Assembly (NCBI RefSeq): GCF_023856365.1
Contig: NC_064549.1
Location: forward strand, 11,363,608-11,427,607
Source: Brienomyrus brachyistius
Taxonomy: Eukaryota; Chordata; Actinopteri; Osteoglossiformes; Mormyridae
DNA: 64,000 bases
Direction of reading: 5' to 3'
Shown here: in pieces, positions 861 to 21,924 of the stretch
Layout: each line of letters begins with the position of its first letter
Numbering within the stretch: the stretch's first letter is position 1
Program-made: the position numbers and the translations under genes
Notes under the pieces: generated by a model
What the model saw: the letters and a program-made list of their open reading frames with translations, nothing else
Told to the model about the DNA's origin: nothing
The model's database searches: none

Positions 861-1193
<333 letters not shown>

Positions 1194-1360
1194 TTATCTC
1201 ACGTGTTATCTATTTTTTTCCAATTGTAAAATGTGAGATTTTAATCAAACTTTACTCCCACTATATGTGGTACGTGGGTGTAAATCCCGCTTGCTTTGGG
1301 TCTGAGCGGGCAGTGTGGTTGATATGGTTATGAGCTTAAAGTTTATGCTGCAACTCCAAC

Positions 1361-1567
1361 CTCCAAGTTGAGACGTTCCAGCAGCTCCTGTAGTGTCTTC
1401 GGCCTCGGTCGCTTGCTCCGCCTGTTGCGCCTGATCTTTGGCTCTTCGGTGACCGTGTCATCGATGAGGTCAACGTAGATGAACTTGAAAGTGCCGACTT
1501 TATTGTTCAGCACGCCCGACCATATGCCCATGGGCGTTTTGCTGATGATGTCAATTATGTCACCCTC
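1361..1567 (-). CDS. samsn1: samsn1 exon: SH3 domain second half and NLS-like block
   Basis: 69 codons, phase 0 at both ends. It starts [16 protein letters not shown], then [19 protein letters not shown], which is the RT-loop end, the conserved SH3 tryptophan and the C-terminal strands of the SAMSN1/SASH SH3 domain. Next comes an Arg/Lys-rich block ([12 protein letters not shown]) in the position of the mammalian nuclear-localisation signal, and then [12 protein letters not shown], the first helix of the SAM domain. The donor reads GAG|GTTGGA, which is weak, but the protein continues smoothly into EYASS in the next exon. Confidence 0.92.
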
Positions 1568-1955
1568 CTAAGTAGAAGCAAAAAAGTCCATTATTAGAAC
1601 TAGAATAGAATTACAATAGAATAGCTCTTTTTATTGTCGACGTTTTCTAAAAAACAGCAAAAGACCATTTAGCGGCTCTGGGATCGTAAGCATAGAAAAT
1701 GCCGTAAAAGATGTAAACTTAAACGTGAACAGACATGAATAACATAACGCAGTGAGATAGTATGTACCGATACTGCAAACTGATGATAACGTAAAGTGCA
1801 AATGAAAAATAAGAGTGACAGGGAGTAATGAGTTTCCAGTTCTGTGGGGTGGGGGGTTCATTACATCTCAGTCAAGATGGTGGCGCGCTCACACACAGCG
1901 GCCTGGGGGCTTTTCAAGGTTTGGCAGCTATTTTACAATTACATCACTGCTCTTA

Positions 1956-2234
<279 letters not shown>

Positions 2235-2328
2235 TCAGCCATAGACACAGGCACAGTCAGGAGATGAATCGCTGTACGATGTTAATAAAACTTTATTTGT
2301 TCTCTCGCGAAATCCTGTGTTTACTCAC

Positions 2329-2443
2329 TGGACGAGCTCTGCTCACTGTTGAGGCTCTCCACAGAGTTGGCCTTCAGATGTTGCTCCTCTGAGTGATGAT
2401 GGCTGCCCACATCGTCCTCATGGTCTCCTTCTACGTCTTCACT
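2329..2443 (-). CDS. samsn1: samsn1 exon: acidic linker
   Basis: 115 nt that enter in phase 0 and leave in phase 1 at a consensus GTGAGT donor. The peptide SEDVEGDHEDDVG, then SVESLNSEQSSSS, parallels the acidic/Ser-rich linker of mammalian SAMSN1 (SDSMDSLYSGQSSSS). It is low complexity and probably disordered. A His-rich patch (SHHHSEEQH) sits in the middle and has no counterpart that I recall. Confidence 0.88.
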
Positions 2444-2506
2444 CTGAATCAGAAACCGTGTAAGTTGCCGGCTACAGGAAAGAGGTTCACCAAAGCTGGT
2501 GGGACT

Positions 2507-2897
2507 GTATGATGGCGCAGCAGACTGCACTGCTGCCTCACACCTGCGCAGCTGTGGCAGCCAGGCCTGCCTCTGTTCTGTGTGTCTGGAATCTGCATGT
2601 TCTCCCTATATAACATGGGGTACTTCCCACAGACCAGAGACATGCATTTACTTTATTCTTCCCTGTAGGGAAATTCTCTTTTTCCCTCCCCCCCTTGGTG
2701 CCAGTGTGACACACAGGCAGGTGAGAGCAAGCTTGGGGGTCATGGCATGCAATATCCCTGAATCTGAGGGGGGGAGGCTTTGCATGGGGGCCAACAGACA
2801 TGTGACACATCAGACCTTCTGATCACAGGCACAAAGGCTTAGCCCTCCCCCATGACCCTGAATAGAATAAGTGGTTGAAAGGTGGATGGATAAATCA
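2507..2897 (+). repeat. degraded tRNA-derived SINE, interrupted
   Basis: The head ATGGCGCAGCAGACTGCAC and CTGCCTCACACC, then CTGCATGTTCTCCC, matches the SINE at 24227. The tail GACCCTGAATAGAATAAG followed by GGTGGATGGAT also matches. The middle (about 2690-2840) is diverged or inserted. It lies in a samsn1 intron, immediately upstream of the acidic-linker exon on the gene strand. Confidence 0.65.
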
Positions 2898-3227
2898 TTC
2901 AGTCCGTAGGGAATGCAACCCTTTAATTAAGTGCTTTGACCTTTCAAAATGTATCTGACGGGTTTGGAGACAACAGTAATCTCACGTTACTTAAGGTAAT
3001 ACGCGGGTTTGAAATTCACAGTAAACGTTGACTCTGTTCTGTTTAGACAGCATTTAATGCAACATTTTGGTAAACTTACATTTATCAATGCATGTTCCTC
3101 TTCCATGCCTAATTTAGCTGTTTCAAAACGCTGTATGTTGACATAAGATTCTTGAGAAATTTAAGTAGAGGCCATTTCTGCAAGAGCTATTGAGGGAATC
3201 AAGCTTTTCTATCGGTCTCTAACTCAC

Positions 3228-3359
3228 CGTCACTTCAGAGGCCTTGGGATGCTTTTTGTACATCTTCATCCGCATAGTCAGAGAGATGGCCCTCATCTTC
3301 TTCCCCAGGCTCCCGGCTTTTGATTGGTCACTCTCGTCACCTGACTTTTCATCACGCTC
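3228..3359 (-). CDS. samsn1: samsn1 exon: basic GKKMRAIS segment
   Basis: 44 codons, phase 0 at both ends, with acceptor TAG and a consensus GTGAGT donor. It encodes ERDEKSGDESDQSKAGS, then LGKKMRAISLTMRMKMYKKH and PKASEVT. The GKKMRAIS-TM-KK block is a family hallmark (human GKKMRAISWTMKKKVGKK) and is basic enough to act in nuclear targeting, as proposed for SAMSN1. Confidence 0.92.
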
Positions 3360-3703: not shown

Positions 3704-3781
3704 CCCTGTACATTCATCTTCTGTCTTCACTGGGGATGGATGGTGTTTGAAGGCTTCAAACTTTCCAAAGCTGGTGGAGCG
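3704..3781 (-). CDS. samsn1: samsn1 exon: RSTSFGKF motif
   Basis: 26 codons, phase 0 at both ends. It encodes RSTSFGKFEAFKHHPSPVKT then EDECTG. The RSxSF-x-F motif is shared by SAMSN1 and SASH3 and holds the serine that is phosphorylated in SASH3 (SLY1). The donor is GTACGT and the acceptor CAG. This is the first exon common to the short and the predicted long form. The short form reaches it from 4652 and the long form from 6823, both in phase 0. Confidence 0.92.
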
Positions 3782-4651: not shown

Positions 4652-4708
4652 CTTTGGCTTGCTGTTTTTTGCTTTGTCTGAGACGTTGGATGATTTCCTT
4701 TGAAGCAT
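4652..4708 (-). CDS. samsn1: samsn1 short-form first coding exon
   Basis: 19 codons, MLQRKSSNVSDKAKNSKPK, aligning with human SAMSN1 MLKRKPSNVSEKEKHQKPK. The start ATG has an A at -3 and is the only in-frame ATG in the open stretch, which extends upstream to about 4777 without another ATG. The donor AAG|GTAGGG joins in phase 0 to RSTSFG. The 5' UTR and promoter of this form should lie in about 4710-5100. I see no clear TATA box at a fixed distance. Confidence 0.92.
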
Positions 4709-6230: not shown

Positions 6231-6394
6231 TGGGCGGACAGTTCAGGTTCAGAAAGTAAAAAGTCCAGACCAAGATTTTGTTTCATCCAACCAGTTGAGT
6301 ACTCTATGACTATGACTCTTAACGTTCAACTGGTTAGTTGAAACAAAATCCTGGTCTGGACTTTTTTACTTTCTGAACCTGAACTGTCCATCTG
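6231..6394. mobile_element. hAT-like hairpin MITE, copy 1
   Basis: Long inverted repeat: the left arm (GGACAGTTCAGGTTCAGAAAG and on through the AACCAGTTGAGTAC region) is mirrored by the right arm ending CTGAACCTGAACTGTCC. The arms are about 65-70 bp with a short loop around 6300-6325. The same family occurs at 15243-15407. The right terminus CCATCTG is close to the CAGAGGTGGAA terminus of the second copy. The element is non-coding and intronic. Confidence 0.8.
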
Positions 6395-6822: not shown

Positions 6823-7196
6823 ACTGGAGTCGTACAAATCCAGGTCGGTGATGGACCGCATGACGCGGGGGGGCGGATGCTCGCCAGAACATATCCAGTG
6901 GCAGTCCTTGCGGGGGAGAGTGAAGTCACCGGCGTGCGCTCGGCATTCGGTGAGAGGCCGACGGCAGGTATGGTAGCTGGCACTCCAAGGGAGGGGCCCC
7001 TCAACCGGGTTGCTCCAGCGCTGCTGGCCAGGGGGGGGGGCTGTGTTCCACGTCAGGTCCAAGGCCAGGAAGGGCTGCTCTTGGGCCTGCTCTGGGGCTT
7101 CTGTGTATGGCTTCTTCTCTGGTCTTTTGGCCATGCTGATGCAAGATGCCACAAAGTTCTCACTCATAGGTCTGCAGTCCTGAACATGTGCTACAG
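6823..7196 (-). CDS. samsn1: samsn1 predicted long-form exon (large, Pro/Trp-rich)
   Basis: 374 nt that enter in phase 1 and leave in phase 0 at a strong GTAAGT donor. Chosen acceptor: TTTCTCCAG, because with the preceding exon it gives an uninterrupted frame. Two other nearby CAGs run into TGA at the join. The peptide begins VAHVQDCRPMSENFVASCIS, passes through basic KRPEKKPY, a Gln/Glu patch (PEQAQEQPF), Trp- and Pro-rich sequence and several Cys/His, and ends MRSITDLDLYDSS. It then splices to RSTSFGKF. I know no domain for it. It is open for 124 codons and GC-rich compared with the flanks. Confidence 0.6.
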
Positions 7197-7439
7197 CTGG
7201 AGAAATTTGATCAAAGTTAATTCCTTTGTTATGGCTTCCAAGACTTGCTAAATTGAACTGCTAGTTAGTGCTTTTGTAGCTTTAGGAGAAAAGTTGATCC
7301 TTAGTTAATGTGCTACTTTCTCCAGAGAAGGAGATTTCTTTAGAATTACCATTGTTTTCAATGATGCTTTTGTTCTTCCTAGGGCTTTTATGCCCCCCCT
7401 TCTTCACACGTGGTGCATTCTGGGACGTCTTGGTTTTAC

Positions 7440-7497
7440 CTCTTGAGTCGACCATTTCTCCAAAGACATGGTCGGCCTGGAATTCATGAAGAATCGT
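7440..7497 (-). CDS. samsn1: samsn1 predicted long-form small exon
   Basis: 58-nt exon encoding TILHEFQADHVFGEMVDSR, with a good acceptor (TTTATCTCTGAAACAG) and donor G|GTAAAA. It enters in phase 0 from the 8080 exon and leaves in phase 1 into the 7196 acceptor. A second frame is also open, so phase consistency is the main argument for the chosen reading. Confidence 0.55.
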
Positions 7498-7747
7498 CTG
7501 TTTCAGAGATAAACATATAAGTTTATTTTTTTTCCTTCAGGAAGAACATACCTTACTCTCAGCCCATGGAAGATGTTTTCCGTTGGGCAGGATTTAAGTC
7601 AATTGTGGGTGTTAATATTTTTAAGCAGCCGAGAGTGACTGTTAAAACAGATGTGAAAATGGCAGCTGTAGAACGGTTTTACGCCAACAGAGATGTTCAC
7701 TCAAGTGCACATAGGTGATTATACTCAAGAGCCAGCTGATAGTAGCT

Positions 7748-7787
7748 GGTAGGCCAAAGGTAGGCCAAAGGTAAGCCAAAGGTAGGC
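7748..7787. repeat. 11-bp tandem repeat
   Basis: About 3.5 copies of GGTAGGCCAAA, one carrying A instead of G (GTAAGCC). It lies in the intron between the 8080 and 7497 exons. Confidence 0.85.
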
Positions 7788-8079
7788 CCTCGACTGAAGA
7801 ACTCTTGCATACTCTCATTGTTACTTCTGATTCACATGATAGATGGGACATTGCTCTCCACATAGGCTTGTCAGCATGTTCTACAAATTTCCCACTGCTC
7901 CACCTTCACCGGGACTGAGCAGCACATTCACAGCTGTGTGGCAAGGGATTTGCCCCCCCAGCCCCCCGGCCTTCTGCTCAGCATTACAGGATGGCCACAT
8001 TACGGAATTTAAAGGATGTTCCCCTCCAGAATGCCCCTTCTGTCTCCACCATCATGTTGTCCCAGAAGTGTAGACTAAC

Positions 8080-8115
8080 CGGGTCTTGCTGGCTCTCCCA
8101 ATTTGGGGTCCATGC
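8080..8115 (-). CDS. samsn1: samsn1 predicted long-form micro-exon
   Basis: 36 nt (12 codons), phase 0 at both ends: AWTPNWESQQDP. The acceptor is GGAAGTTTTCAG and the donor is CCG|GTTAGT. A (TA)n microsatellite begins about 40 bp upstream of the acceptor on the gene strand. Support comes only from splice signals and phase, so the assignment is tentative. Confidence 0.45.
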
Positions 8116-8148
8116 CTGAAAACTTCCAACCTAACAACAAAAGAAAAT

Positions 8149-8151
<3 letters not shown>

Positions 8152-8207
<56 letters not shown>
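8152..8207. repeat. (TA)n microsatellite
   Basis: About 28 uninterrupted TA dinucleotides, beginning about 37 bp upstream of the predicted 36-nt micro-exon on the gene strand. Confidence 0.98.
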
Positions 8208-8209
<2 letters not shown>

Positions 8210-9047
8210 AGTTATCAGAATCAGAATACTAATATTATCCTATAAAAAAATTCAATTACAATGCCTATAAAAAAGTGCTGAAAGTAAATATAAAAATATC
8301 CAAATATCCTTGTCACTCTGCAATTCCATTAATTAATTTGGGCTGCAAAGATTCGGTTCTGTACCTTGATTTTTCAAAATCGTGTTATTTTCAGTGTGCG
8401 CCGTAAATCTCTGCAGTTGCTACGCTACAGAATCCAGGATGCATGATTTTCGTCTCAGTTTTTTCACTGTGTTTTTTATGACCTTGTAGAGACATAGGGC
8501 GTAAGTTTGGTCTTAACATTGATAGGGACCAAATCGGCCCCCAACCCCCTACCCCCTAAATGCACCCAGTCCTCCCACAGTATTGGTAAGGACATGTCCC
8601 TACTGCCCTACCTAAATATACGCCCTTGGCGTAGATCATTTTCCAAGGATTCTTAATTATGCAGCACACGCAGCGCCATCCAGTCAGCGTACTGTAGCGG
8701 GTTTGCAAACCCGCATGTTTAGCTTGACAGGTCTGCCCTTCATCTGTGTGGTATCACTAGAGATTTGTTCGTGCGAAGCTTTAAAATGCCATACTACATG
8801 GCTTAAGAAGGCAGCGTGAAATCTGTTTGTCCCCCAAAGGACAAGCTGCTTGTTAATTCGAAGGAGATTTTTTTTTTTTTTGTGCCGGTTAACGTACTGA
8901 TATAAAACAGCAGATAGTCTGCTTTGCAGAAGAGCTATCATCTCGCCGATAGACCATTTTTGCTCACTAACATCACGAGTGTCCTCTGGCCATAAGATTT
9001 ATTTCTGAATCATTGCAGATAGTTATATCTTTAAATGAAACATTTAC

Positions 9048-9154
9048 TTCCTCTACCTCGACAACCAGTTCCTTCTTCCCCCTTCTGGAAATCAGCTGGC
9101 CAATCCTTTTCTCTTCTATCTTGGGTTCAGTCCGCGGCGCGTCCTTCCACATTT
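9048..9154 (-). CDS. samsn1: samsn1 predicted long-form exon
   Basis: 107 nt encoding, after the split codon, MWKDAPRTEPKIEEKRIGQL, then ISRRGKKELVVEVEE. It is charged, with a basic SRRGKK patch. The acceptor is ACATTTCAG. Two donors are possible, both in phase 0: GAA|GTAAAT (exon end 9048) or GAG|GTAGAG (exon end 9057). It enters in phase 1 from the 10058 exon, the split codon becoming GAA. Confidence 0.58.
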
Positions 9155-10057
9155 CTGAAATGTTACATTATTTCTGCCAAATTGCTGTCATAACTGCCCC
9201 AGACTCCGTTCGTGCGTGCTACAATTTGCATTTAATAATTTCAGTAATTATATCCCAGATGCCCTGCTTTTTGGGGCTACACTTTCAGACCCCATACAAA
9301 TTAGAACAAATTCCAAAAAATTTTTTATTGTAGCATAAAGGTGGATATAAATGTCACATTCCACCTGGTCAGCATTATAATCCTGTTTTGTTTATTGTAT
9401 TTAATTTTTTTAATGAATGATTGTTATGGCTTAAGTTCATTCGATTTTCAGTGAGTAAAGGGGTTTCTGAGAAATCTCACATCATCAACAGGAACAGAAA
9501 ACCGTGCGGAATGCATGACATTCTACCTCCTATTTGATTGCCTCTGACGAGAACTAAATCCTCTCCCTTCTTGGGCGCTTGCCAGTAAATGTTATGGCAG
9601 CAGGAGATGCCATCTGCAGCAAGGGACCCAAACCAAACTCCACTAAGGATTTATTTGTCAAGGGGGTGGGGGTTTGGGGGTTGCATAAATCAAATGGATT
9701 CCGAAAATCGAATGGACTCAAAGTGGGTCACAGTGTGCAGCACTCTCATCGCGTTTGCGAGCCTTTATTTTCCATATTAAATTTTTGGGCATAAACAAAG
9801 AAATGAATAGTGAATGCTGACATTGTCAGATGACACTTGTCGTTTCTGAAACGTTCCGTGTTGTTTTTGCTCGCTGGGCTAGTCCGCACCTCGCCTGTTG
9901 GCCTGATACGCCTCCTCAGCTAGTTTAACCAGATGTCACATGACATTATATGTCATGACATAATACTTCTTCTTTTGATTCAATTCACTGAGTAATCAAG
10001 GCTTTACTCATAAAAACAAAAGAGAAAAAAAAAAACAATGGAGTTATTTATACGCAC

Positions 10058-10092
10058 CTATTGTACTCAATGTTGATTTTGGCGTTAAGGTC
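10058..10092 (-). CDS. samsn1: samsn1 predicted long-form micro-exon
   Basis: 35-nt exon behind a textbook acceptor, TCTCTTTCTTGCTTCAG, with donor G|GTGCGT. It enters in phase 2 and leaves in phase 1. Its peptide TLTPKSTLSTI bridges KKKKIK upstream to EMWKDAP downstream. Without it, the flanking exons cannot be joined in frame. That it exactly repairs the phase is good evidence that it is real. Confidence 0.58.
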
Positions 10093-11442
10093 CTGAAGCA
10101 AGAAAGAGATTAATAAAATGGCATCATTTTCATATTTAAAACATGAATCGCACATGCAGGCACCGCACTTTCTTATTGTTAGATCCACCTGTGCCATGTT
10201 TATTTAGTCAAATAAAAGAGCCACCTTAGACAAGAATGTAAATTATCGTATTTTGTGAATTTATAGTCTGGGATAATTCATTTATGGCATTTACGTTATT
10301 ACGACATGACACCAATGAGTTGATCGATTCACTACGTTGTATGACTTTATGACAGTAACCAAAGTGTATAAGACAGTGGTATGTACTGCAATGAGTCCAT
10401 AGTTTTATTCATTTTCTTGGTAGTGATAAGAACTCCAATGGGCCTGGTACCGTTACTAGTCCTAACATGAGTGAAACGGGCCTTATCAGACATGCGTTCT
10501 TTCATCTTCACTTTCATTATTCATTTCAGATGAAAACTCACCAGGGTCAATGGAAAGTTTATCTTATGAGCCACCAAAGTGCACAAATATAAAAAAAAAA
10601 CTCCACGTTAAATATTAATGTGCCCAGCTAGCATACTTACGATGCAAAGCGCACAGACATCAGATTAAGTCGCTTATGACGGAATTGTTCTTTAATTGTC
10701 ATGCTCCAGTAGAAAATGGTTCAGGGTTTGCAGGAAACGTGTGAATATGATGGCTTTGGCTTTCAATACCCATGACCATCTAAAAAACATCTAAAAACAC
10801 CGAATAATAAAGCCTGTGAAATTTGAATGGGAATTAAGCGGCTCAGTTGTTGTTGCTGGGCAGCTTTATAATTGCATAAGATGCATCAGGCAAGCAGTAT
10901 TATTGTTTATGATTAATAATTATTGTATTATTCTTATTATCGTACACCTGTGAGGGAGAAATTATGTCAGCCCACCTGCAGATCTATTTTCTTTCACAGA
11001 TTAACTAAAAGTTTAATTTTGTAATTTCTTTTTCTTACTGTAAACCAAACGTTTTTTTTTCTCAGATAGAAGGGGTCTAGGTACCAGGTCTGACCAAAAA
11101 GCTTTCGCAGCACTGGGAAAAAAATTCCAGTGTAACTGGATGTCTCTGGTGCAGTGAATGCTGCAAAATGATTTTGTATTTGTTCATCATTGAGATAAAA
11201 AGTGCGTCACACAGATCTCGTGTTTGTTCATCACTATTTCAGTTCCTTCTGTAGTTCACGAAGATTTACGGCATTAACAGATCTAGTAACAAATTTACTA
11301 ACTGGTCGTGATGCTTCATGATTCATTAATGAACAAAAATAAGATTTCTCATGTGATATTCATTACTTGTTCCTTCAGTTGTTCCTCCTGTCTGGATAAC
11401 TTACAAGAAACAAAACCGAACAAAAACCGAAACAAAACTGAC

Positions 11443-11492
11443 TTTATCTTCTTCTTTTTGGCGCCGTCGTGGTGAAATCGGGAATAATGCTC
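11443..11492 (-). CDS. samsn1: samsn1 predicted long-form exon, basic
   Basis: 50 nt encoding EHYSRFHHDGAKKKKI plus two bases of a split codon. Acceptor: TGACTTCCCTCAG. Donor: AAA|GTCAGT, which is moderate. The GAKKKKIK block resembles a monopartite nuclear-localisation signal. It enters in phase 0 from the 12281 exon and leaves in phase 2 into the 35-nt exon. Confidence 0.52.
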
Positions 11493-12280
11493 CTGAGGGA
11501 AGTCAGAGGGACACGTTTTAAGTATTTATTTCATGCTTCTGTCTGCATTCTGCACATATTAGGTAAATATTTTAATGGAAATCATATGCTGTGAAGAAGC
11601 ACATTGCAAAACAGTGAGTTGGTTGTGGGTTTGATTGTGGCATCAGCTCCGTGGGAAAAGAGTCGATGTGCCCCCACTGTGTGTGTTTCCTGTTGCAGCT
11701 GAGGAGCAGCAGCGCCTCTCGGTTTGTCTAATGAGCATCCTGCAAAGACCGGATGTGCTGTCTAGGACACAGCCTCTCTCAGTCCACATCTTTAACCGGC
11801 TAGACTCCTATTATTTGTTAGCGTAGAAATATTCATCGTGCAGACCGATGAATTTTCGTATCTTTTTATTGAGCAGTATAGGTGGAAGTTGGACAATAAT
11901 GCATTGACTTTCTGGTGTTCAGTGTGGAAGAACCGAATGGAAAACCCTGGAGAAACTTGCTGATGCGCTTAAAGACGCATCGTAACGCGGATTTGCGTAA
12001 AATACGACACAGTTCAACCACTTGCATTACTGGAACGTACCCGGGCGGATGATAATAAATAGAAATACCAAATGAATGTTGAATGATTGCTGTGAAGTAA
12101 TAATGTTTGGTTCAAGAAGGTCAATTTGACTGTAATATATAATCCAAATCCAAACGGCATTTTCCTATTATTGGTGATGTGGAGGAATGGTGCTCTGAAC
12201 TCTGACTTATTAAGCACTGTGCAATGAAATGAAGCTCAGTCCTGTGTGACTGCGACCACGGCAGAAGTGACGGCACTCAC

Positions 12281-12424
12281 CGCGGAGGCAGATTTTGCTG
12301 AGCCATGCCACCTGGTGTCCTCGTCCGGCAGGACCCCCCTGCCACAAGGCCTGCTGGGAACGGCGTACATTTGTGTGCCGTTGCCTTCCTTGACTGGCTC
12401 ATATAGGCTCTCCAAAGAGCCTTC
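12281..12424 (-). CDS. samsn1: samsn1 predicted long-form exon 2
   Basis: 48 codons, phase 0 at both ends, with strong signals: acceptor TGTGTTTTGCAG and donor GCG|GTGAGT. The peptide begins EGSLESLYEPVKEGNGTQMY, then AVPSRPCGRGVLPDEDTRWH and GSAKSASA. The sequence is hydrophilic and Ser/Gly-rich, with a YEPV tyrosine motif that could be a phosphorylation site. Its frame continues open upstream through the intron into a minisatellite starting about 80 bp away, so intron retention would still be translated. Confidence 0.68.
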
Positions 12425-12468
12425 CTGCAAAACACAGTATGGAAAGTGCACAATAAGAGCAGCTTGTT

Positions 12469-13007
12469 TAGTGTTTCCCAACCCGGTACTTGGGTACCCC
12501 AGATAGTCCACATTTTTGCTCCCTCCCAGCTCCCTGGCAAACAGTCCACATTTTTGCTTCCTCCCAGCTCCCTGGCAAACAGTCCACATTTTTGCTTCCT
12601 CCCAGCTCCCTGGCAAACAGTCCACATTTTTACTCCCTCCCAACTCCCTGGCAAACAGTCCACATTTTTGCTCCCTCCCAGCTCCCTGGCAAACAGTCCA
12701 CATTTTTGCTCCCTCCCAGCTCCCTGGCAAACAGTCCACATTTTTGCTTCCTCCCAGCTCCCTGGCAAACAGTCCACATTTTTGCTCCCTCCCAGCTCCC
12801 TGGCAAACAGTCCACATTTTTGCTTCCTCCCAGCTCCCTGGCAAACAGTCCACATTTTTACTCCCTCCCAACTCCCTGGCAAACAGTCCACATTTTTGCT
12901 TCCTCCCAGCTCCCTGGCAAACAGTCCACATTTTTGCTCCCTCCCTGCTGTCGGAACAAAAACGTGGACTGTCTGGGGGTCTCTGGGGACCAGGTTGGGA
13001 AACACTG
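12469..13007. mobile_element. hAT-like MITE carrying an internal minisatellite
   Basis: The left end AGTGTTTCCCAACCCGGTAC and the right end ACCAGGTTGGGAAACACTG are inverted copies, and the identity continues inward (GTCCACATTTTT against AAAACGTGGAC). GTTTAG occurs at both outer flanks. Related elements without the expansion lie at 55157-55323 (full) and 52172-52232 (right-end fragment). The termini CAGTGTTTC/GAAACACTG are typical of non-autonomous hAT elements. Confidence 0.72.
12505..12952. repeat. 38-bp minisatellite, about 12 units
   Basis: Units start at 12505 and every 38 bp to 12923: 11 complete and one partial. Three unit types differ at GCTCCC, GCTTCC or TACTCCC (the last also with CAACTCC). 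The TACTCCC type recurs at units 4 and 10, each preceded by a GCTTCC unit, which suggests duplication of a multi-unit block. Because 38 is not a multiple of 3 and no unit frame holds a stop, all six frames are open through the array. Confidence 0.97.
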
Positions 13008-13786
13008 GTTTAGAACAGCAGTTCGCCATCCTGGTCTTTGGGGGCCTATGGGTGGTCAGTTTCTTCAGCCATAAAAAGTGTCATCATCTCCAGTACTGAC
13101 AAAATGGCTTAACTTTCATTAAGCCTAATTGCTACTTTGAGTATGTACCTCTCAGTGTAACCCAGCAGGAAATGTTGTTTCCGTAGCATTTCTTAGCACT
13201 GTTTGTTATATTTTCCACCGTGAAATAACCAACAGTCAGTCTCACACAAGGCCATACAGTCCCAGGTTATGGTAAGTTACTAAGTTATACACAACTTAAA
13301 AAAAATAGAAATGCAGTAAGTCCCAATTATCAAAATCTGTTGGGTGATTCTTTTCAAGAATCGGTAGTCTGGCCAACGAAGCTTTCGCCGCTCAGAATGA
13401 CTGATTGTCGCCATCCTTCAGTGCCCTACAGTTTACCCAGATTATGGGTTCCCATGCGAGTCGTGTACCAACGAACTTGAAATCAAATACTTTCAGACAA
13501 TGGCTCTGAAACGGGACTCGTCTATACCTCTGCATAGCTCATACTTCAGGATCTCTTATGGTGAATTTTCATTTTTCTAAAGGTAAAATATTCCTTCACA
13601 TCTGTCTAAGAATCTGCCGCTTTCATTCCCCTCTCAGCCTTTGTTGAGTTTTTTTTTTTATCTTTTGTCATTGATTGATTGATAATTAATTAAAGCAATA
13701 GCTGCTCACCCGTCCTTCTTTGAAGAACAATGACAGCTTGATGCAGGTAGGATGCAAAACAGACACCAGTCATCTTACCTCCATAC

Positions 13787-14002
13787 CAGTGGTCTCCAAC
13801 CTTTTTTACAGTGAGATACTTTTTTACAGTGAGATACTTTTGCAAATAAAATAATCTGGCATAATCTAATTGTGACGGTATTTTTTCCAGTGGGGTGTGG
13901 GGTGCTGCGTCACTGGACTTTGCCAATGGGGGAAGCCAGTCTGATCGTCACAATCGACTACCAACAACCTGGTGATCACGATCGATCGGTTGGCGACCAT
14001 TG
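13787..14002. mobile_element. hAT-like MITE, second family
   Basis: Terminal inverted repeat: left CAGTGGTCTCCAACC, right GGTTGGCGACCATTG (13 of 15 positions pair). It contains a tandem doublet of TTTTTTACAGTGAGATAC near 13801. The flanking 8-mers match poorly (4 of 8), so the target duplication is eroded or absent. Confidence 0.6.
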
Positions 14003-14295
14003 CTGTACATTTTTGGTATCGGAAGGCTTTACACCACTTGACTAAAAATTAACTGAGCCTGCCAGCTTGTACCAAAGTCCAGATGCGGGACATCCTCAAG
14101 TCTCAGTAAAGCCCTAGGAACCAGGCTGACCTGCTGATGCAGGGGACACATCTTCAGCACAGCACAATGATATTTGAAAGAAAGAACCCACTGGACTGCA
14201 CCCACATTAGAACTTAAAAAGCTATAAAAGTCTACTTTACCAGGGAGAAGCAGAAGAGGTTCATTTTGCTGAGTCGTTTCGTTGTCCCAAGATCC

Positions 14296-14402
14296 CAGTG
14301 CAGCGTGTAATGTAGCAGTCTGAAGCTCCAGTGCAGCCTATAATGTAACAGTCTGCAGCTCCAGTGCAGCGTATATTGTAACAGTCTGCAGCTCCAGTGC
14401 AG
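14296..14402. repeat. 33-bp tandem repeat, 3 copies
   Basis: CAGTGCAG recurs at 14296, 14329, 14362 and 14395 with a constant 33-bp step. The unit also contains TAATGTAACAGTCTGCAG. It lies in the predicted first intron of long-form samsn1. Confidence 0.92.
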
Positions 14403-15242
14403 GCAAGTTGCACCTTCTCTGGTCAGCTGCCTTCTGTCCCCCAGATTAGCACTGGCTGAAATCCTGCCGATAATCCTCTATATACAAGGAGCTACTGCTT
14501 CACTAGGCCATCTTCACAGCAGCTGCTCCATGACCCCAGCCCCGCCCACCCCACGTGGGACAGGATCAGAACCCGGGCAGCAAACAAACAAACTCCCAAT
14601 CCGTGGCAACTAGTTTTGCTGGAGGTCATGATCTTGTATCAAAGGTTACTGGAGGACCAATTAATATTCACTGTAGTTTCTTACATTATTTTTTTCCCGC
14701 AACATGTTTAACTGCTTTCACTAAATATAGGTAGCTTTTAAACATCTTAACATCTTTTAAACAACTTGAGCAAACATTTTTCTCTGTTACTTTGTTTTCC
14801 AGAGCTGAGATGCTCTCTTTCCAATAATATCTTGGAATTAAGAAATTAAAATGTTTTATTTATTAAGTGCAAACATCTACATGCAATTGCAATTAAATCA
14901 CTGTACTTACATAACATTTATTGCTTGCACTTGTTTTAAGTAGGTTAGCAGGTGTATGATTGAAAGGGGTTTTTAATTTTCAAAAAGCATTCTGCAGTGT
15001 AATGCGTAAGGTATAAAAAGTCACAAACACATTGCTCTTAGGAAATGTCATTTTAATTAAATTCATTAATCAGATTAAGCAGGTTGATACATTTGTTTAT
15101 CAATTTATCTGACCTTAGTGGGTTTCAGTGTAGATGTGAATGCAAAGATTAAATGCAAATCGAAAGGGGCATGGAATCTTTTAGCATTACTGTTTGTTAC
15201 ATTATTTACTTTGTAATATTATTTCCTTTATATACAATTACA

Positions 15243-15407
15243 CAGAGGTGGAAGTTTCAGGTCCAGAAATTAAAAATCCTGACCATGATTTTGGTTCAAT
15301 CAACCAGTTGAACATAAAGAATAACAGTCACATAGTACTCAACCGGTTGGTTGAAACAAAATCTTGGCCTGGATTTTCAGTTTCCGGATCTGAAAGTTCC
15401 ACCTTTG
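15243..15407. mobile_element. hAT-like hairpin MITE, copy 2, with target duplication
   Basis: Terminal CAGAGGTGGAA at the left and TTCCACCTTTG at the right. The body is a near-complete palindrome of the same family as 6231-6394 (GATTTTGGTTCAATCAACC mirrored by GGTTGGTTGAAACAAAATC). Flanking 8-mers CAATTACA (15235-15242) and GAATTACA (15408-15415) match at 7 of 8, the target-site size of hAT transposases. Confidence 0.88.
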
Positions 15408-17214
15408 GAATTACAGGCATTGTAATATAATATTTGTTTAATAGTTCATTGCATGAATGTCTCATTCTGCACCAAGTGTCGGATTACGGAGCCAGTTAGT
15501 TTAGGGGTATTTGGAAACGGAAGATCTTTACGCAATGTTACACATTATAGGGATTGCCAAAGCTAAGATTCAGTCCTGAACCCCTGCGCGTGTCTTCCGA
15601 AAATACTTGCTGCATTGTTGCGTCGACGGCTTACGTTTATGGTCTGCATTAGCGCATGCACCATTCTGAGTAAGCTTTTCGCTTTTATGCAGCGAGCATT
15701 TAGGGAGGTCAGAAATCGCCGGGCAAATTACAGCCGCGACTTGCGTTTAAGTAGCCATCGACTGCTTTAGATAAGGTACCAGAAGCTTGGCTTTCATCAG
15801 GGCTGCCATACTGTGGTCCATTGACCTCCGACTTTGTTTGGTACGTCCCACGCAAGACAGGAAGCAGAGGCCTAAGCTCCAGATGAGCGCCAGAAGGCGG
15901 CAGATACAGCTACTGACCCCTATTGTGTCTTGTACAGAAGTAGGTCAAACTCCAGATGCTGAAGATAGTGGGTGGGTTGTCGCATCAAATGCGCAGGGCT
16001 CTGGCCAGGGTGTTGCAACATGCCACTGTTGCTGAGAGGTGCTTGAGGACCCACGGCTGCGGAACATTTTTCCCCCCACTTTTGTACTTATGATTATTTC
16101 TTCACATTGCATTAGTTATTATTTGCTATTTCTTTTGGTCAGCTCCCCCTTATTCTTCATACATGCTGATATATGGTTTTATTACCTTGTAAATAGTCTG
16201 TAGGGTTTGCAGACTGCCCCAGCGCTTTTGATTCGAGCTAATTTTAGGTTTATAATGGAGTAATATAGATTTGCTGTAACATTTCTTGTGCGAGCGTGAG
16301 AGTCAGAAAGCGTGAGAGTCACGACAAGTGCGTGAGATCTGGCAACCCTGTATGGCTTTACTGAGTAATGGGTTTATTGAAAATGCCATGGTAGCCAAAT
16401 CTCTCATGGTTTGGAGGAGGGCTCTTCTGTATTACGTATCACCCTTTTTAATCAACTGATAAACCAAAGAAATAAATATCGCCTGGGAAAGACCTGTGGG
16501 ACTTTCCCCGACACTTCCTGCGGGAGAAAGTGCCCCGCACGTTCGGGACTCTTCGTGTTTTTCTGTTTCTTTCCGCTGCCGAAAGTGGACCAAAAGCTGC
16601 GGGTTTCCGAAACGCGCCGTGGGGGGGGGGGGGGGGGGGTGAGGGGGGGTATGGTTAAAGTTTGGGGTTGGCAGTATTTTTAACGTCGAACGGGCGTCCT
16701 TCGCAAATACCGAAAGGTCATGGAAAAGGAAATTAAGACCGAGAGATTAAAACGCATCTGACCCATATTTAGTTTGGTTGAACAGCAGGCGGGTTATTTA
16801 TATGCAGACGAATGTGATTTATAAAATTGTATATCTACGCCCTCGATTTTTCGTGACTTTTTTTCGCAAGAAAACATGGATATAATTTTCAAAGTTGCTT
16901 TGAAATAGCCCGTTTCGCCCACTTGTATCATATTAGACGTTATTAATGTTTATTTAATATACAGTTAAAACTAGTAACGCGCCTATAGCACACTCCCCGT
17001 GTATCTCTTACGTCCAGTGTTAATTTTTAATAATCTTTTATTAAAAATGAAAAAAAGTTAATAAGAAATAGGACTTTTCTTAAAAACCTTTCTGTAGTGT
17101 TACTTCTACAGGTTGCATTAGTTGGTTACTGGTGGGGGGGGGGGGGAAATTATTGTACCTTTTGCTGTCTTACCAATGTAATTGCATCTAGGAAAAACTA
17201 AGCGATTACAGAGA

Positions 17215-17700
17215 CTAAGGATAATTTGAGCTATTTTGCTGTGCATTTTTTATTTCTGCAGTTCGGGTTGTTAGAATTCTGTACCGTGATTTATTGACGC
17301 AAGATATAGTGTTATATGCCTTGTGTTTAGCAGACTTTAGATAGGCTGCAATGTTCTTGGAGAATAATGTCTTTCTCAGTTTCGTAGAAATGGTTTTGTG
17401 ACCTTTTCCAACCTGATGACCATCAACAACTTTTTTTCTGGGGTCCTCAGAAATCTCCTTCAATCTAGCCATGACCAAGCTGCGTTGTGAAGATCAGATA
17501 ATGATCAGATAATGTATGTGCTATAAGATAATGTACGTGCTATAAGATAATGTACATGCTATAAACTTGCCAAAGGCTCCCACATTCACATTTGATTGTC
17601 ATCTCATTGACTGTAACTGATTCTCCGTCTAATGAAATCAAAATCCTTGCAATTCACATACTTTTTCCCACACGTAAATATGTTACATTGGATCATTTCC
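17215..17700 (-). pseudogene. Tc1/mariner remnant, internally deleted transposase
   Basis: On the minus strand an open stretch from an ATG at 17472 reads MARLKEISEDPRKKVVDGHQ, then GKGHKTISTKL, the N-terminal helix-turn-helix of Tc1-like transposases. It runs straight into LFSKNIAAYLKSAKH, which belongs near the start of the catalytic domain, so the central part is deleted. No DDE residues remain. The sequence upstream of the start (to about 17700), ending GTGGGAAAAAGTATGTG on the minus strand, resembles a Tc1 5' end. A 20-bp triplicate (GATAATGTACGTGCTATAA type) lies at 17503-17561. Confidence 0.7.
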
Positions 17701-18446
17701 TCAATAACCTTTAAATATCGTCAGTGAACAAGGCTGTAATATTTTGCTGACTGTAATCTTGCTTCCCAAGCTAAGTACCTGCAGCTTTGTTAGCCAATAT
17801 GATTCTGGGTTAATTGTTTAATTTTCTCTACAATTAATCTACATTCTTTTTTTTCTATGTAATGTAATGTTAATATGATGGACTCAGCTAGCCTGGAATG
17901 TGTTGATTTGAAGCAATTTTATGTACCTCTGGGTATACTGGGTCTGGTTTACCATAAATATCTAACCTAGATCTCTATTGGGGCAAACACCATGATCATT
18001 ATGTGGCTTATGCTGTGCAACTTTGAGGGCAATATTTTTTTTAAAATGCGAGTGCTATTTTGAGTGGTAAAGTAGACACCTTATTGTGTGGATAGTTATG
18101 CATAATAGATGTTATAACGGATATCAGCACAAGTTTCCCTTAAAATTTGTATGTCTTTGTTTTCAGACTTCATCTGTGAGCAGATAATCATCTGAGATCG
18201 AGATTAGAACAGGACCTGTGAGTAGCCTGAGCGCGCGATGATGGTGTATGCAGGTGAGATGGCAGTCCAGTTTAAATTTCTCCTGAGTTTTTTTGCCCAG
18301 TGATGTAGGAGATGCCCACAGATTTTTCGTTGAGACGTCTCTGAATTTTCTTGTGTTTCTATGTAGTTATAAATACAAAGAAAACAAAGGGCATGATGGT
18401 GTAATTATGTATTAATTTTTTGCAAAGAACGTATGACCATATATGT

Positions 18447-18449
<3 letters not shown>

Positions 18450-18480
<31 letters not shown>

Positions 18481-18657
18481 TATGCGTAAAAAATGTCAAA
18501 AGTCTTGCATTGTGTTTGGTTAGTTATGCTTAAGGTTAGGGTTGGAAAGGGATAAGATTGTCACTGTTGGGATTAGGGTTACGCCCATAGAAATGAGTGG
18601 ACGATTCCCACAAAGCTATGAATGCAAACGTGTGTGTTTGTGTGTGTGTGTGTGTGT
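18450..18657. repeat. (CA)n at 18450-18478 and (TG)n at 18631-18657
   Basis: Two microsatellites of complementary sequence about 150 bp apart. They could pair as a long inverted repeat. Confidence 0.93.
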
Positions 18658-19084
18658 TCTAAAAAGGAGAAAAATGGGCTTTGAGAAAATAAGTAACTCG
18701 ATGGTGCCTGTACTTCTATATGTGCAAATGGCAAATAAAGGATTGTTCCATTTCATTTACAAACGTTAACAAAAGACTATTAATCTCCAGTGCATCATTA
18801 GCTGCATTGGCGATTAAGCAAGTGCCTGAATCGGTATCTTGGTCGAGGAGACATTCTGGTGTATCACTAACCAGAGCTGATATCAAATATCAGGTGGGAG
18901 TTATAAAATGGGTGGGGGGGTTATAAAATCGTCATGTTAAAATCAAGAATAAAAAAATCTGCAGTCTATGAAATAAATAGGAAAGTGGTAAAAACCTGTG
19001 GTGTGCATTAACTTTTGATTGGTAGTGTATTTTTGGCCATGTAATGTGTGCATATTTCTTACTGACTGTAGTGATCGCTAGCTA

Positions 19085-19350
19085 GCTGTCAGGCTTTTAT
19101 CCTGAAGCGGGTTGGAGGGGAATCCAAGTCGCTGGTACGCCTGAGCGAAATGCCACCCACAATCATGAACTATGGGCAATTTAGTGCTGCGATTAGCCTA
19201 AACATGTGCCTCTGGACTGTGAGAGGAAGCCCACACCATGGGGGCGGGAGGGAACATACATCATAAACAGAGTGGGATTGAACTCCCCCCCCCCACCCTG
19301 GAAGTGCGATACAACAGTGCCACCCACTGAACCACAGTGCCACCCCTTAT
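19085..19350 (-). repeat. tRNA-derived SINE, minus orientation
   Basis: Read on the minus strand it begins GTGGCACTGTGGTTCAGTGG, has a B-box-like GAGTTCAATCCCACTC, then CTCACAGTCCAGAGGCACATG and CTAAATTGCCCATAG. This is the order seen in the intact copy at 24227, so it is a diverged member. Confidence 0.68.
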
Positions 19351-19436
19351 TACCGTATTTGGATTTAAATTACTGAAAAGCCTTAATTACATAGATAATA
19401 CATCCTGAATGACCGGGTAGGGGGAATCACGTTACG

Positions 19437-19545
19437 TACAGGTATCCTGTGATGGTCTGGAATTCCACCCAGGGTGTTCCCAGCCTCGGTCGTCATGTTC
19501 CTGGGATAGGCTCCAGGATGCTGTAAGCGGTTAAAGGAAAAGCCG
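19437..19545 (+). repeat. SINE 3' tail fragment
   Basis: CCTGTGATGGTCTGGAATTC, then CCTGGGATAGGCTCCAGGAT and GTAAGCGG correspond to the 3' half of the SINE family described at 24227. Confidence 0.6.
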
Positions 19546-21792
19546 TGGTTGGATTGATCAGTATTTCTTAAGGAATAACTGTACATTTTGGCAAAAACTG
19601 GTTATTGTTCTTTGTGTTCAGTGATTTCTGGGGTAATGCAGTTAGCATTCAGTGCATGATTATTATTGATGCGACTGTTATGCTAAAGGCCTGTTTCCTG
19701 GGTTAATGAGACGAACAGCTTGCTCAGATTTACCAGCAATGTTTAATAGATGTATATCGGCATACGTATCTTGTAATGGGCCAGTTCAGCAGAATATATG
19801 GAGAGATATTAAAGCCACAAATACCATAGCCTTCCGATCACAAATGAGAATTGAGTCGTCATTTCTCATCCCGTCCACCAGATGTCACCGTTGTAGTTTT
19901 TGTCCTTTATAGGGGCTGCATCTTAATTAACGGTTGTGAAATTCTATGACACCTACAAATCATTCAAGTGACAATCATTCAAGTGACACAAATCATAGTA
20001 GAGAAATCTACCAACTGTTATGTGTTTCTTCCTAGTGTCTTGTGAATATACTGCGTTCATTTGAAACAGATTTTTAATCTTTCTCCATGCGCTCTGCTTT
20101 TCTTTATTTGCCCATTTCTGGCAGATTCCTGAACTCACCATAAGCAGAATATGTGGCAGAGGGTTTTGGTTTGTTACAGACACTTCATTACCAACATTGT
20201 CCACTTTGTCATGGGCTTATTAGTCACGTGTCACTTAATGCCAACGAATCGATTGTCTGTCGGTGGACCTGTCTGAGCAGAGGGCAAAGAGAGTTCTGAA
20301 AAGACACCAGTGAAGCGCCAAGTAGCCATGTGAGTCTGTTCAGAGGGCTGCCATGGGTGGCTGGAGAGATGGCACCGAGGTCAGAGAGGGGGAAAAAAAC
20401 GTTTCAAACAGGATGATTTCTGCTCAGCCATAACCCTGTGTTGACTCGGCCAAGCCATAAAACCATTGATTCCATGTCCCCTCGCCCAGGCTCTGTAAAT
20501 TGCCTAAACAGGCTTTTGCATTTCACATCATAAATTTGCCACGGTGTGACTGAAGGTAATGAAGCAGTTTGCTAATCTTTCGGCCTCCAGCTTGCTGGTG
20601 CATTGCAAACGGAATGCGAATGGGTGTTGGGGGGCTGGGGGGGGGAGGCTAAATTAACAGCTTAGTGACCACTACTGACAGGAGGCCCCCAGGCTGAATG
20701 ATCATACTGCCACACACCCAGGAATGTTCCAGGTTTTTTCATTTGGTCCTAAACACATTTCTTCTTAACGTGTGTTAATCACAAGCGCTGGTTTGATGGG
20801 TCTCCACGCAAAAATGCAGCCCGTGGTAAATGGGTTCTGTGTAGAAGAAACTCTTCAAAAAGCAAAATGTCTATATTTCTAACAGAGGAGATAAGGCCTG
20901 TCCTTCCCTTTTCATTTACTCAGAGTTGCAGAGGTTTGGCGATCTCTTCTGGATAACACATTAATATGTTATAATTAAGCTTCACGCGCAAACATAGGGG
21001 CATCAACCATAGACATGCGATCAAAAAGATTGCTAGTTTTTGGCCAATAATGGTTCTACAATCATACGTCACCTAAAACTGCCCCGTGCCGAGCGACGTT
21101 TCCCGATTTAAAAGTGTTTGAGCTGAATTGGCTGCTGCATTTTTCAGTTATCGGTCCTGAGCGGGCTCTCAGTTTCGCTAATGAAATAGCCACGCGAGTA
21201 TGACGATGCTCCGTTGGCCCTGCGTGTCTCGCCACGTCTGAGCCAGAATCAAATGGGCCGTTTAGATGAAGTGACTGCCGCGGTGTGGGAAAGCCCACGC
21301 TGCTCTGATTTAGTGTGAAGCTCCGATTTGCTCGATGAAAAGTGCACAGATCTGCTGATGTAGGATCTTTCGCTGTGCCTTCCTACAGTTTCAGCTGCTC
21401 GGTAAAACACTGTGGGGGAAGTGGATTGGGCAGCTGGTCGGTGTTAATTTCCTTTGGCTAATAACTGGAACAGATGTCAGTTTGATAATACAAAGGAGAG
21501 ATTCACACCATCAGTTGAGAATGTAGCCTTAATATGTCTGGAAAAAAATGTATTGATATCTGCCTACCTATAAAGTCTGTACCTATACAAGGTTATTTAT
21601 ACCTGTTTGTGTTCTCAGCAGCTAATATTAATAATTATTGAATCATCTGATGAAAATTCTCTCTAAGTCTTGAATACCTCCACTGGAAAATATGCTGCGT
21701 ACTGTACACAAGTTTATCGGACAGCAGTTAACGAAAAACACACGCAGGATGGATGCACGGTATTCTCTCCCCTGCACCCGGACCCTGCATAC

Positions 21793-21924
21793 CTTTCCTG
21801 ACTTTTGACCTGATATAGGTACACCCAGGGGTTTGAACTTTGACCTCTCCTGCGACCCCTTGTGCACTTGCACCCCCCGAGTCAGAGAGTGAAACATTTT
21901 GCCCCTCCGACGGTGACCCGGCAT
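21793..21924 (-). CDS. samsn1: samsn1 predicted long-form first coding exon
   Basis: 44 codons from ATG at 21924 to the donor AAG|GTATGC. It starts MPGHRRRGKMFHSL and ends KFKPLGVPISGQKSGK, then joins in phase 0 to EGSLESLYEP. A second in-frame ATG (MFHSL, A at -3) could start instead. A TATA-like ATAAAAGG lies 62-69 bp upstream of the first ATG and a GC-rich block lies behind it, which fits a first exon. The exon is strongly basic. The distance to exon 2 (about 9.4 kb) and lack of homology knowledge keep confidence moderate. Confidence 0.48.

What the first reader, a model, noticed from the sequence alone, without database searches (positions are those of the whole stretch)
6823..21924. A chain of eight upstream exons predicts a long samsn1 isoform
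Eight minus-strand segments with GT/AG ends join with matching phases (0,0,2,1,0,0,1,0) and then enter the known samsn1 core at RSTSFG. Several alternative joins hit stops and the chosen ones do not. The extension would add about 312 residues of unknown fold before the motif, replacing the MLQRK start. I know of no described domain for it.
Basis: partly seen in the sequence, partly recalled or inferred. Interest (0 to 1): 0.75.

Follow-up and report, generated by a model that had tools for sequence, protein, structure and literature searches.

The report
Long form of samsn1, mostly right

Summary
The exon chain is real in substance and wrong in part. Open phases alone prove nothing: this stretch holds about 1.9 billion open eight-exon chains, eight controls 0.24 to 149 billion. 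Protein comparison does decide it. Nine segments (328 residues) enter RSTSFG in phase 0 and match annotated fish proteins in frame. The likely first coding exon is 14264-14241 (MNLFCFSL); exon 9613-9527 was also missed. MNLFCFSL is 8 of 8 in the 20 of 21 chosen relatives that cover it, shark, chicken and dugong included. Databases already hold this form as "SAMSN-1(a) isoform X1/X2" and similar, in bony fishes, shark, amphibians, reptiles, birds and mammals. So it is an orthologue of an already predicted isoform. In the papers I searched I saw no account of its function. RNA evidence could not be tested. No Pfam domain was found in the extension.

The parts
14241..14264 (-).
   Evidence: Only occurrence of MNLFCFSL in six frames of the window; best six-frame score 44, next 27; 8 of 8 in 20 of 21 relatives, the 21st lacking this part
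12281..12424 (-).
   Evidence: E 2e-18 to Paramormyrops, 5e-14 to Arapaima; 35/45 identical to Paramormyrops
11443..11492 (-).
   Evidence: E 0.002 to Paramormyrops; best six-frame score 65, next 28; donor gtcagt scores only 4.9
10058..10092 (-).
   Evidence: 9/11 identical to Paramormyrops; best six-frame score 45, next 23
9527..9613 (-).
   Evidence: E 1e-11 to Paramormyrops, 1e-4 to Arapaima; six-frame score 131, next 31
9057..9154 (-).
   Evidence: E 4e-15 to Paramormyrops; 29/32 identical; acceptor scores only -0.1
8080..8130 (-).
   Evidence: First in the six-frame scan for 5 of 5 relatives' segments, Amia 52 against 26, narrowest salmonid 36 against 30; only E 0.14 by tblastn with Amia; absent from the Paramormyrops model, so possibly optional
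7350..7476 (-). L8: ADHVFGEMVDSRGKTKTSQNAPRVKKGGHKSPRKNKSIIENN (reader had 7497-7440)
   Evidence: 38/42 identical to Paramormyrops; six-frame score 203, next 22
6823..7190 (-). L9: AHVQDCRPMSEN...RSITDLDLYDSS, last extension exon (reader had 7196-6823)
   Evidence: 110/122 identical to Paramormyrops; tblastn hit joining L8 and L9 has E 3e-95
4652..4708 (-). E1: coding part of the short form's first exon, MLQRKSSNVSDKAKNSKPK; skipped in the long form
   Evidence: Sequence; the same exon read from an acceptor before 4880 gives VEYCFAHILSD as at the end of the Paramormyrops model, then F and a stop in the window (sequence)
3704..3781 (-). E2: RSTSFGKF..., first shared exon, starts in phase 0
   Evidence: SPIDER match starts here
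896..3359 (-). E3-E7: 3359-3228, 2443-2329, 2227-2076, 1567-1361, 1046-896; rest of SPIDER, SH3 and SAM
   Evidence: Pfam matches, tblastn to Arapaima; the last coding exon lies about 840 bases beyond the window start

Best explanation
The stretch holds the upstream half of samsn1, coding for the long form of the SAMSN-1 adaptor. A promoter upstream of 14264 starts a transcript whose first coding exon is MNLFCFSL. It runs through up to nine coding exons (328 residues), skips the short form's own first exon (MLQRK...) and joins E2 (RSTSFG) in phase 0. The short form starts near 4.7 kb and joins the same E2, also in phase 0, so both share the SPIDER region, SH3 and SAM and differ only at the N-terminus. 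Shown: the exons, their frames, and their conservation in other species. Inferred: two promoters, the skipping, and the function, which I take to be an extra docking or targeting region of an adaptor with the near-invariant MNLFCFSL start as its key element.
For: In-frame matches of the exons to fish proteins; one consistent set of phases through nine exons into E2; MNLFCFSL 8 of 8 in 20 of 21 chosen relatives, and at the start of 132 of 195 fetched proteins; long forms with the same core annotated from shark to mammals; SPIDER, SH3 and SAM above Pfam cut-offs.
Against: No RNA evidence. The relatives are mostly machine-made gene models. 56 of 195 fetched proteins do not hold MNLFCFSL at all (partial models or other predicted starts). 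L7 is missing from the nearest model, and the L6 acceptor and L3 donor are weak. Several relatives are annotated as extension-only proteins (P0001, P0061, P0134, P0195).
Confidence: 0.88

Rival explanations
1. The upstream exons mainly make a separate extension-only protein: L9 joins the exon that holds the short form's start, reads VEYCFAHILSDF and stops, giving about 340 residues without SH3 or SAM.
For: The Paramormyrops model ends in just this exon (VEYCFAHILSD 11/11 at 4880-4848); extension-only models also in Larimichthys P0195, Salmo P0061 and tinamou P0134.
Against: Full-length models that run into RSTSFG or its counterpart are far more common in the listings (19 of 20 carry the SPIDER domain); L9 ends in phase 0 like E1.
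Confidence: 0.08
2. The exons are decayed remains of a long form that this species no longer uses.
For: The core branch of the window is longish (0.39, median 0.18); some splice sites score poorly; L7 is missing from the nearest model.
Against: All nine exons are open in one consistent set of phases, with 78-91% identity to Paramormyrops in the seven exons that its model covers.
Confidence: 0.03
3. The chain is a chance product of many possible splice joins.
Against: Protein matches of the other segments; reversed window gave no hit at E<=0.5 for two of three queries, two hits (E 0.002, 0.25) for the third.
Confidence: 0.01

Closest known systems
SAMSN-1 / SAMSN-1a long isoforms (names such as 'isoform X1/X2': Arapaima P0024, Amia P0002, turtle P0038, chicken P0112, dugong P0139, shark P0194)
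   Same: MNLFCFSL start, EGS-x-(D/E)SLYE block, extension entering RSTSFG or its counterpart, then SPIDER, SH3, SAM
   Different: Extension sequence diverges fast outside the start; window lacks the GTL(K/R)RLQ(K/R)LV motif seen in bowfin, gar, tetrapods and shark
Paramormyrops kingsleyae uncharacterized protein, 337 aa (P0001)
   Same: 78-91% identical in seven of nine extension exons
   Different: Model starts inside L2, lacks L7, and ends in the short form's 5' exon instead of E2
Short SAMSN1/HACS1/SLy2 protein
   Same: E2-E7 core with SPIDER, SH3, SAM
   Different: Starts at MLQRK... and lacks the 328-residue extension
Second samsn1-like copy on C30 and SASH-like copies on C10, C14, C61 of the same genome
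   Same: Core domains match
   Different: Extension matches at E<=1 fell on C17 only; one L2-like stretch lies upstream of the C30 copy

Membership tests
Long SAMSN1 isoform | First coding exon MNLFCFSL followed by EGS-x-(D/E)SLYE | tested here: met
   L1 and L2
Long SAMSN1 isoform | Extension joins RSTSFG exon in phase 0, in frame | tested here: met
Long SAMSN1 isoform | SPIDER, SH3 and SAM downstream | tested here: met
   SPIDER 97.1 bits (cut-off 25), SAM_2 43.8 (20.5), SH3_2 25.3 (21.8)
Long SAMSN1 isoform | Transcript that joins L9 to E2 | not testable with these tools
   No RNA data at hand
Any Pfam domain inside the extension | Match inside residues 1-328 | tested here: not met
   None at E<=1 for an early 590-aa exon assembly and for five relatives; the final 606-aa model itself was not scanned
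SASH1-like N-terminal half | Homology of the extension to upstream exons of sash1 (recalled resemblance) | tested here: inconclusive
   70 kb of the C14 locus gave only the RTCSFGGF exon; further upstream was not obtained

The most novel reading that the evidence does not exclude
The long form is the ancestral jawed-vertebrate SAMSN1 product and a distinct adaptor that experimental work on the short HACS1/SLy2 protein has passed over. Its eight-residue start MNLFCFSL, unchanged from shark to dugong, is a targeting or binding signal under its own promoter. In human the upstream half may be filed as a separate uncharacterized locus (ENSP00000383407/LOC388813).
Probability: 0.4. Interest if true: 0.5.

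Novelty: already known. Interest (0 to 1): 0.28.

Why it matters
It settles that the chain is a real conserved coding region and corrects its borders, so a proper gene model can be made for this species. It also points to something easily overlooked: an immune adaptor usually described as a protein of some 370 residues (length recalled) has a form nearly twice as long, conserved from sharks to mammals with an almost unchanging start, for which I saw no functional work in the papers searched.

Tried and rejected
(1) Reader exon 21924-21793 as first exon: 0 of 195 fetched proteins match at E<=1. (2) My own early exon list used 11492-11405 and read 10092-10058 as DLNAKINIEYN; wrong border and wrong frame, corrected by P0001. 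(3) Open-chain counting as evidence: no better than eight controls. (4) Structure prediction of the Amia long form with 19 sequences: mean pLDDT 47.4; the extension is nearly all below 50, but so is the known SH3 region (477-540), so the model fails its own control and says nothing about disorder. (5) Residue composition: 0.73 disorder-promoting in the extension against 0.69 in SH3-SAM, not decisive. (6) A recalled resemblance of the extension to the N-terminal half of SASH1: inconclusive. (7) dN/dS: no DNA of a related fish at hand. (8) Papers: searches; for most hits I saw only the listing and the start of abstracts. Read: passages of PMC3935309 and its section 13, passages of PMC6557731, PMC7666139 and PMC7475304. 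(9) NCBIfam: one chance-level hit in the core of P0002, none in three others. (10) The choice of 21 relatives for one search was mine and favoured complete models; 139 of all 195 fetched proteins hold MNLFCFSL and 132 start with it.
Full report
What was claimed and what is there. The finding gave a range, eight phases and a length. I rebuilt eight segments that reproduce all eight phases, both end coordinates and a stop-free reading of 314 residues.

Is it more than chance? With loose splice-site scores I counted eight-exon chains that start with ATG, stay open and end in phase 0. The stretch has about 1.9 billion; its other strand 0.70 billion; its reversal 0.24 billion; three other 15.5-kb stretches of the window, both strands, 0.52 to 149 billion. 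Stop-free chains are everywhere. Splice scores of the accepted sites vary: good at 12424, 12281, 11492 and 10092; low at the 11443 donor (4.9), the 9527 donor (4.0), the 7190 acceptor (3.0) and the 9154 acceptor (-0.1).

What does decide. A search with an early exon assembly against 5.8 billion proteins, scored on the extension alone, returned 20 fish proteins. The best, from Paramormyrops kingsleyae, covers the extension only. The other 19 carry the SPIDER and SAM domains, and 15 of the 20 are named SAMSN-1a. Aligned back to the window, the Paramormyrops protein hit 12415-12284, 11483-11436, 9614-9528, 9155-9045 and 7479-6820, E from 0.002 to 3e-95. Controls: the reversed window gave no hit at E<=0.5 for the Paramormyrops and Arapaima queries and two (E 0.002 and 0.25) for Amia. 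In the true orientation there were also three stray hits, E 0.07 to 0.44, which I set aside. An ungapped six-frame scan with 13 segments of relatives put the expected place first in 12, for instance 203 against 22 for L8; the narrowest were two for L7, salmonid 36 against 30 and eel 49 against 39. The thirteenth segment bridges an intron and did not find its place.

The corrected model. L1 14264-14241, L2 12424-12281, L3 11492-11443, L4 10092-10058, L5 9613-9527, L6 9154-9057, L7 8130-8080, L8 7476-7350, L9 7190-6823, then E2 3781-3704 onward: 984 bases or 328 residues of extension, 606 residues to the end of E7. The last coding exon lies about 840 bases beyond the window start and ends ...DSGCYVSLECSDNGKED, so the whole protein would have about 647 residues (my sum). 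Whether L7 is always used, and whether L8 can also start at 7497, is open.

The first exon. MNLFCFSL occurs once in six frames of the window, at 14264, with a rough chance expectation near 1.6e-6. In an alignment with 21 relatives that I chose it is 8 of 8 in the 20 that cover this part, among them shark, axolotl, turtle, chicken and dugong. Of all 195 fetched proteins 139 hold it and 132 start with it. The other 56 are partial models or have other predicted starts, such as EGSMDSLYE without the first exon; the set was gathered by searching with the extension and is not a sample of all SAMSN1 proteins.

How old and how well known. Searches with the Amia and the turtle extension gave 162 and 182 proteins, 120 listed each: teleosts, gar, bowfin, reedfish, shark, amphibians, reptiles, birds, and mammals including platypus, dugong and macaque. 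The macaque and platypus models lack the MNLFCFSL start. Names are mostly of the kind 'SAMSN-1 isoform X1'; [quoted passage not shown] A tinamou extension-only model is named after a human entry, ENSP00000383407, which PMC6557731 lists as LOC388813, an uncharacterized gene (passage). That this human locus is the upstream half of SAMSN1 is my inference. The long form is thus already in databases as a predicted isoform. In the papers searched I saw no account of its function, having seen most of them as listings only. PMC3935309 reports three new human SAMSN1 transcripts confirmed by experiment; the section read does not say whether they use these exons.

Surroundings in the genome. The window lies in a 985 Mb assembly on C17. 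A whole-genome search with the Arapaima long form found core matches on C17, C10, C14, C30 and C61 (plus two weak ones), and extension matches on C17 only. I read C14 as sash1 (RTCSFGGF exon, second SAM), C10 as sash3 and C30 as a second samsn1; these names are my judgement. In 40 kb upstream of the C30 copy, part of which reads N, one stretch at 3697294-3697214, in the right orientation and after an AG, resembles the start of L2 (score 61 against 31 for the next with the Amia segment; tblastn E 0.04), while L1, L7 and the end of the extension were not found. The second copy may keep a trace of the extension. On a tree of the core the window groups with Arapaima at 80/93, so a bony-tongue fish near the mormyrids is likely; whether this is samsn1a or samsn1b in the strict sense is unresolved.

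How it most likely works. Two alternative starts share one core. L9 and the short form's first exon both end in phase 0, so either can join E2. The long form has to skip the short form's exon here, because joining it through the acceptor before 4880 reads VEYCFAHILSDF and stops (sequence). The use of two starts is inferred from the anatomy and from annotated models, not shown by RNA. The extension has no Pfam match in the early assembly or in five relatives. The structure prediction failed its own control, since the known SH3 was not modelled either, so 'disordered' is not established. The steadiest element is the N-terminal MNLFCFSLEGS-x-(D/E)SLYE block, which I take to be a targeting or docking element; this is inference.

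Verdict. A good catch in substance, made with an argument that could not carry it, and ordinary in kind: the orthologue of an already predicted, conserved long isoform.

Noticed in passing
12505-12949: Minisatellite of 11.7 copies of a 38-base unit, 95% matches, directly upstream of exon L2; it produces long chance ORFs on both strands.
   Followed up: partly
14295-14402: Three copies of a 33-base unit just upstream of the MNLFCFSL exon, where a long-form 5' UTR or promoter would lie.
   Followed up: no
P0001, P0061, P0134, P0195: Extension-only models in unrelated fishes and a bird; either repeated annotation splits or a real short product.
   Followed up: partly
G000:C30, about 3686670-3689980 and 3697214-3697294: Second samsn1-like gene in the same genome, with an L2-like stretch about 7 kb upstream; possibly a partly lost extension.
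   Followed up: partly
P0002, P0021, P0031, P0038, P0112, P0194: Conserved GTL(K/R)RLQ(K/R)LV motif in the extension of bowfin, gar, reedfish, turtle, chicken and shark; the window has a diverged RGKTKTSQNAPRVKKGG there.
   Followed up: partly
6250-6390 and about 15240-15400: Two similar palindrome-like stretches (GACCA(G)GATTTTG... and its complement), seen by eye; perhaps copies of a small mobile element.
   Followed up: no
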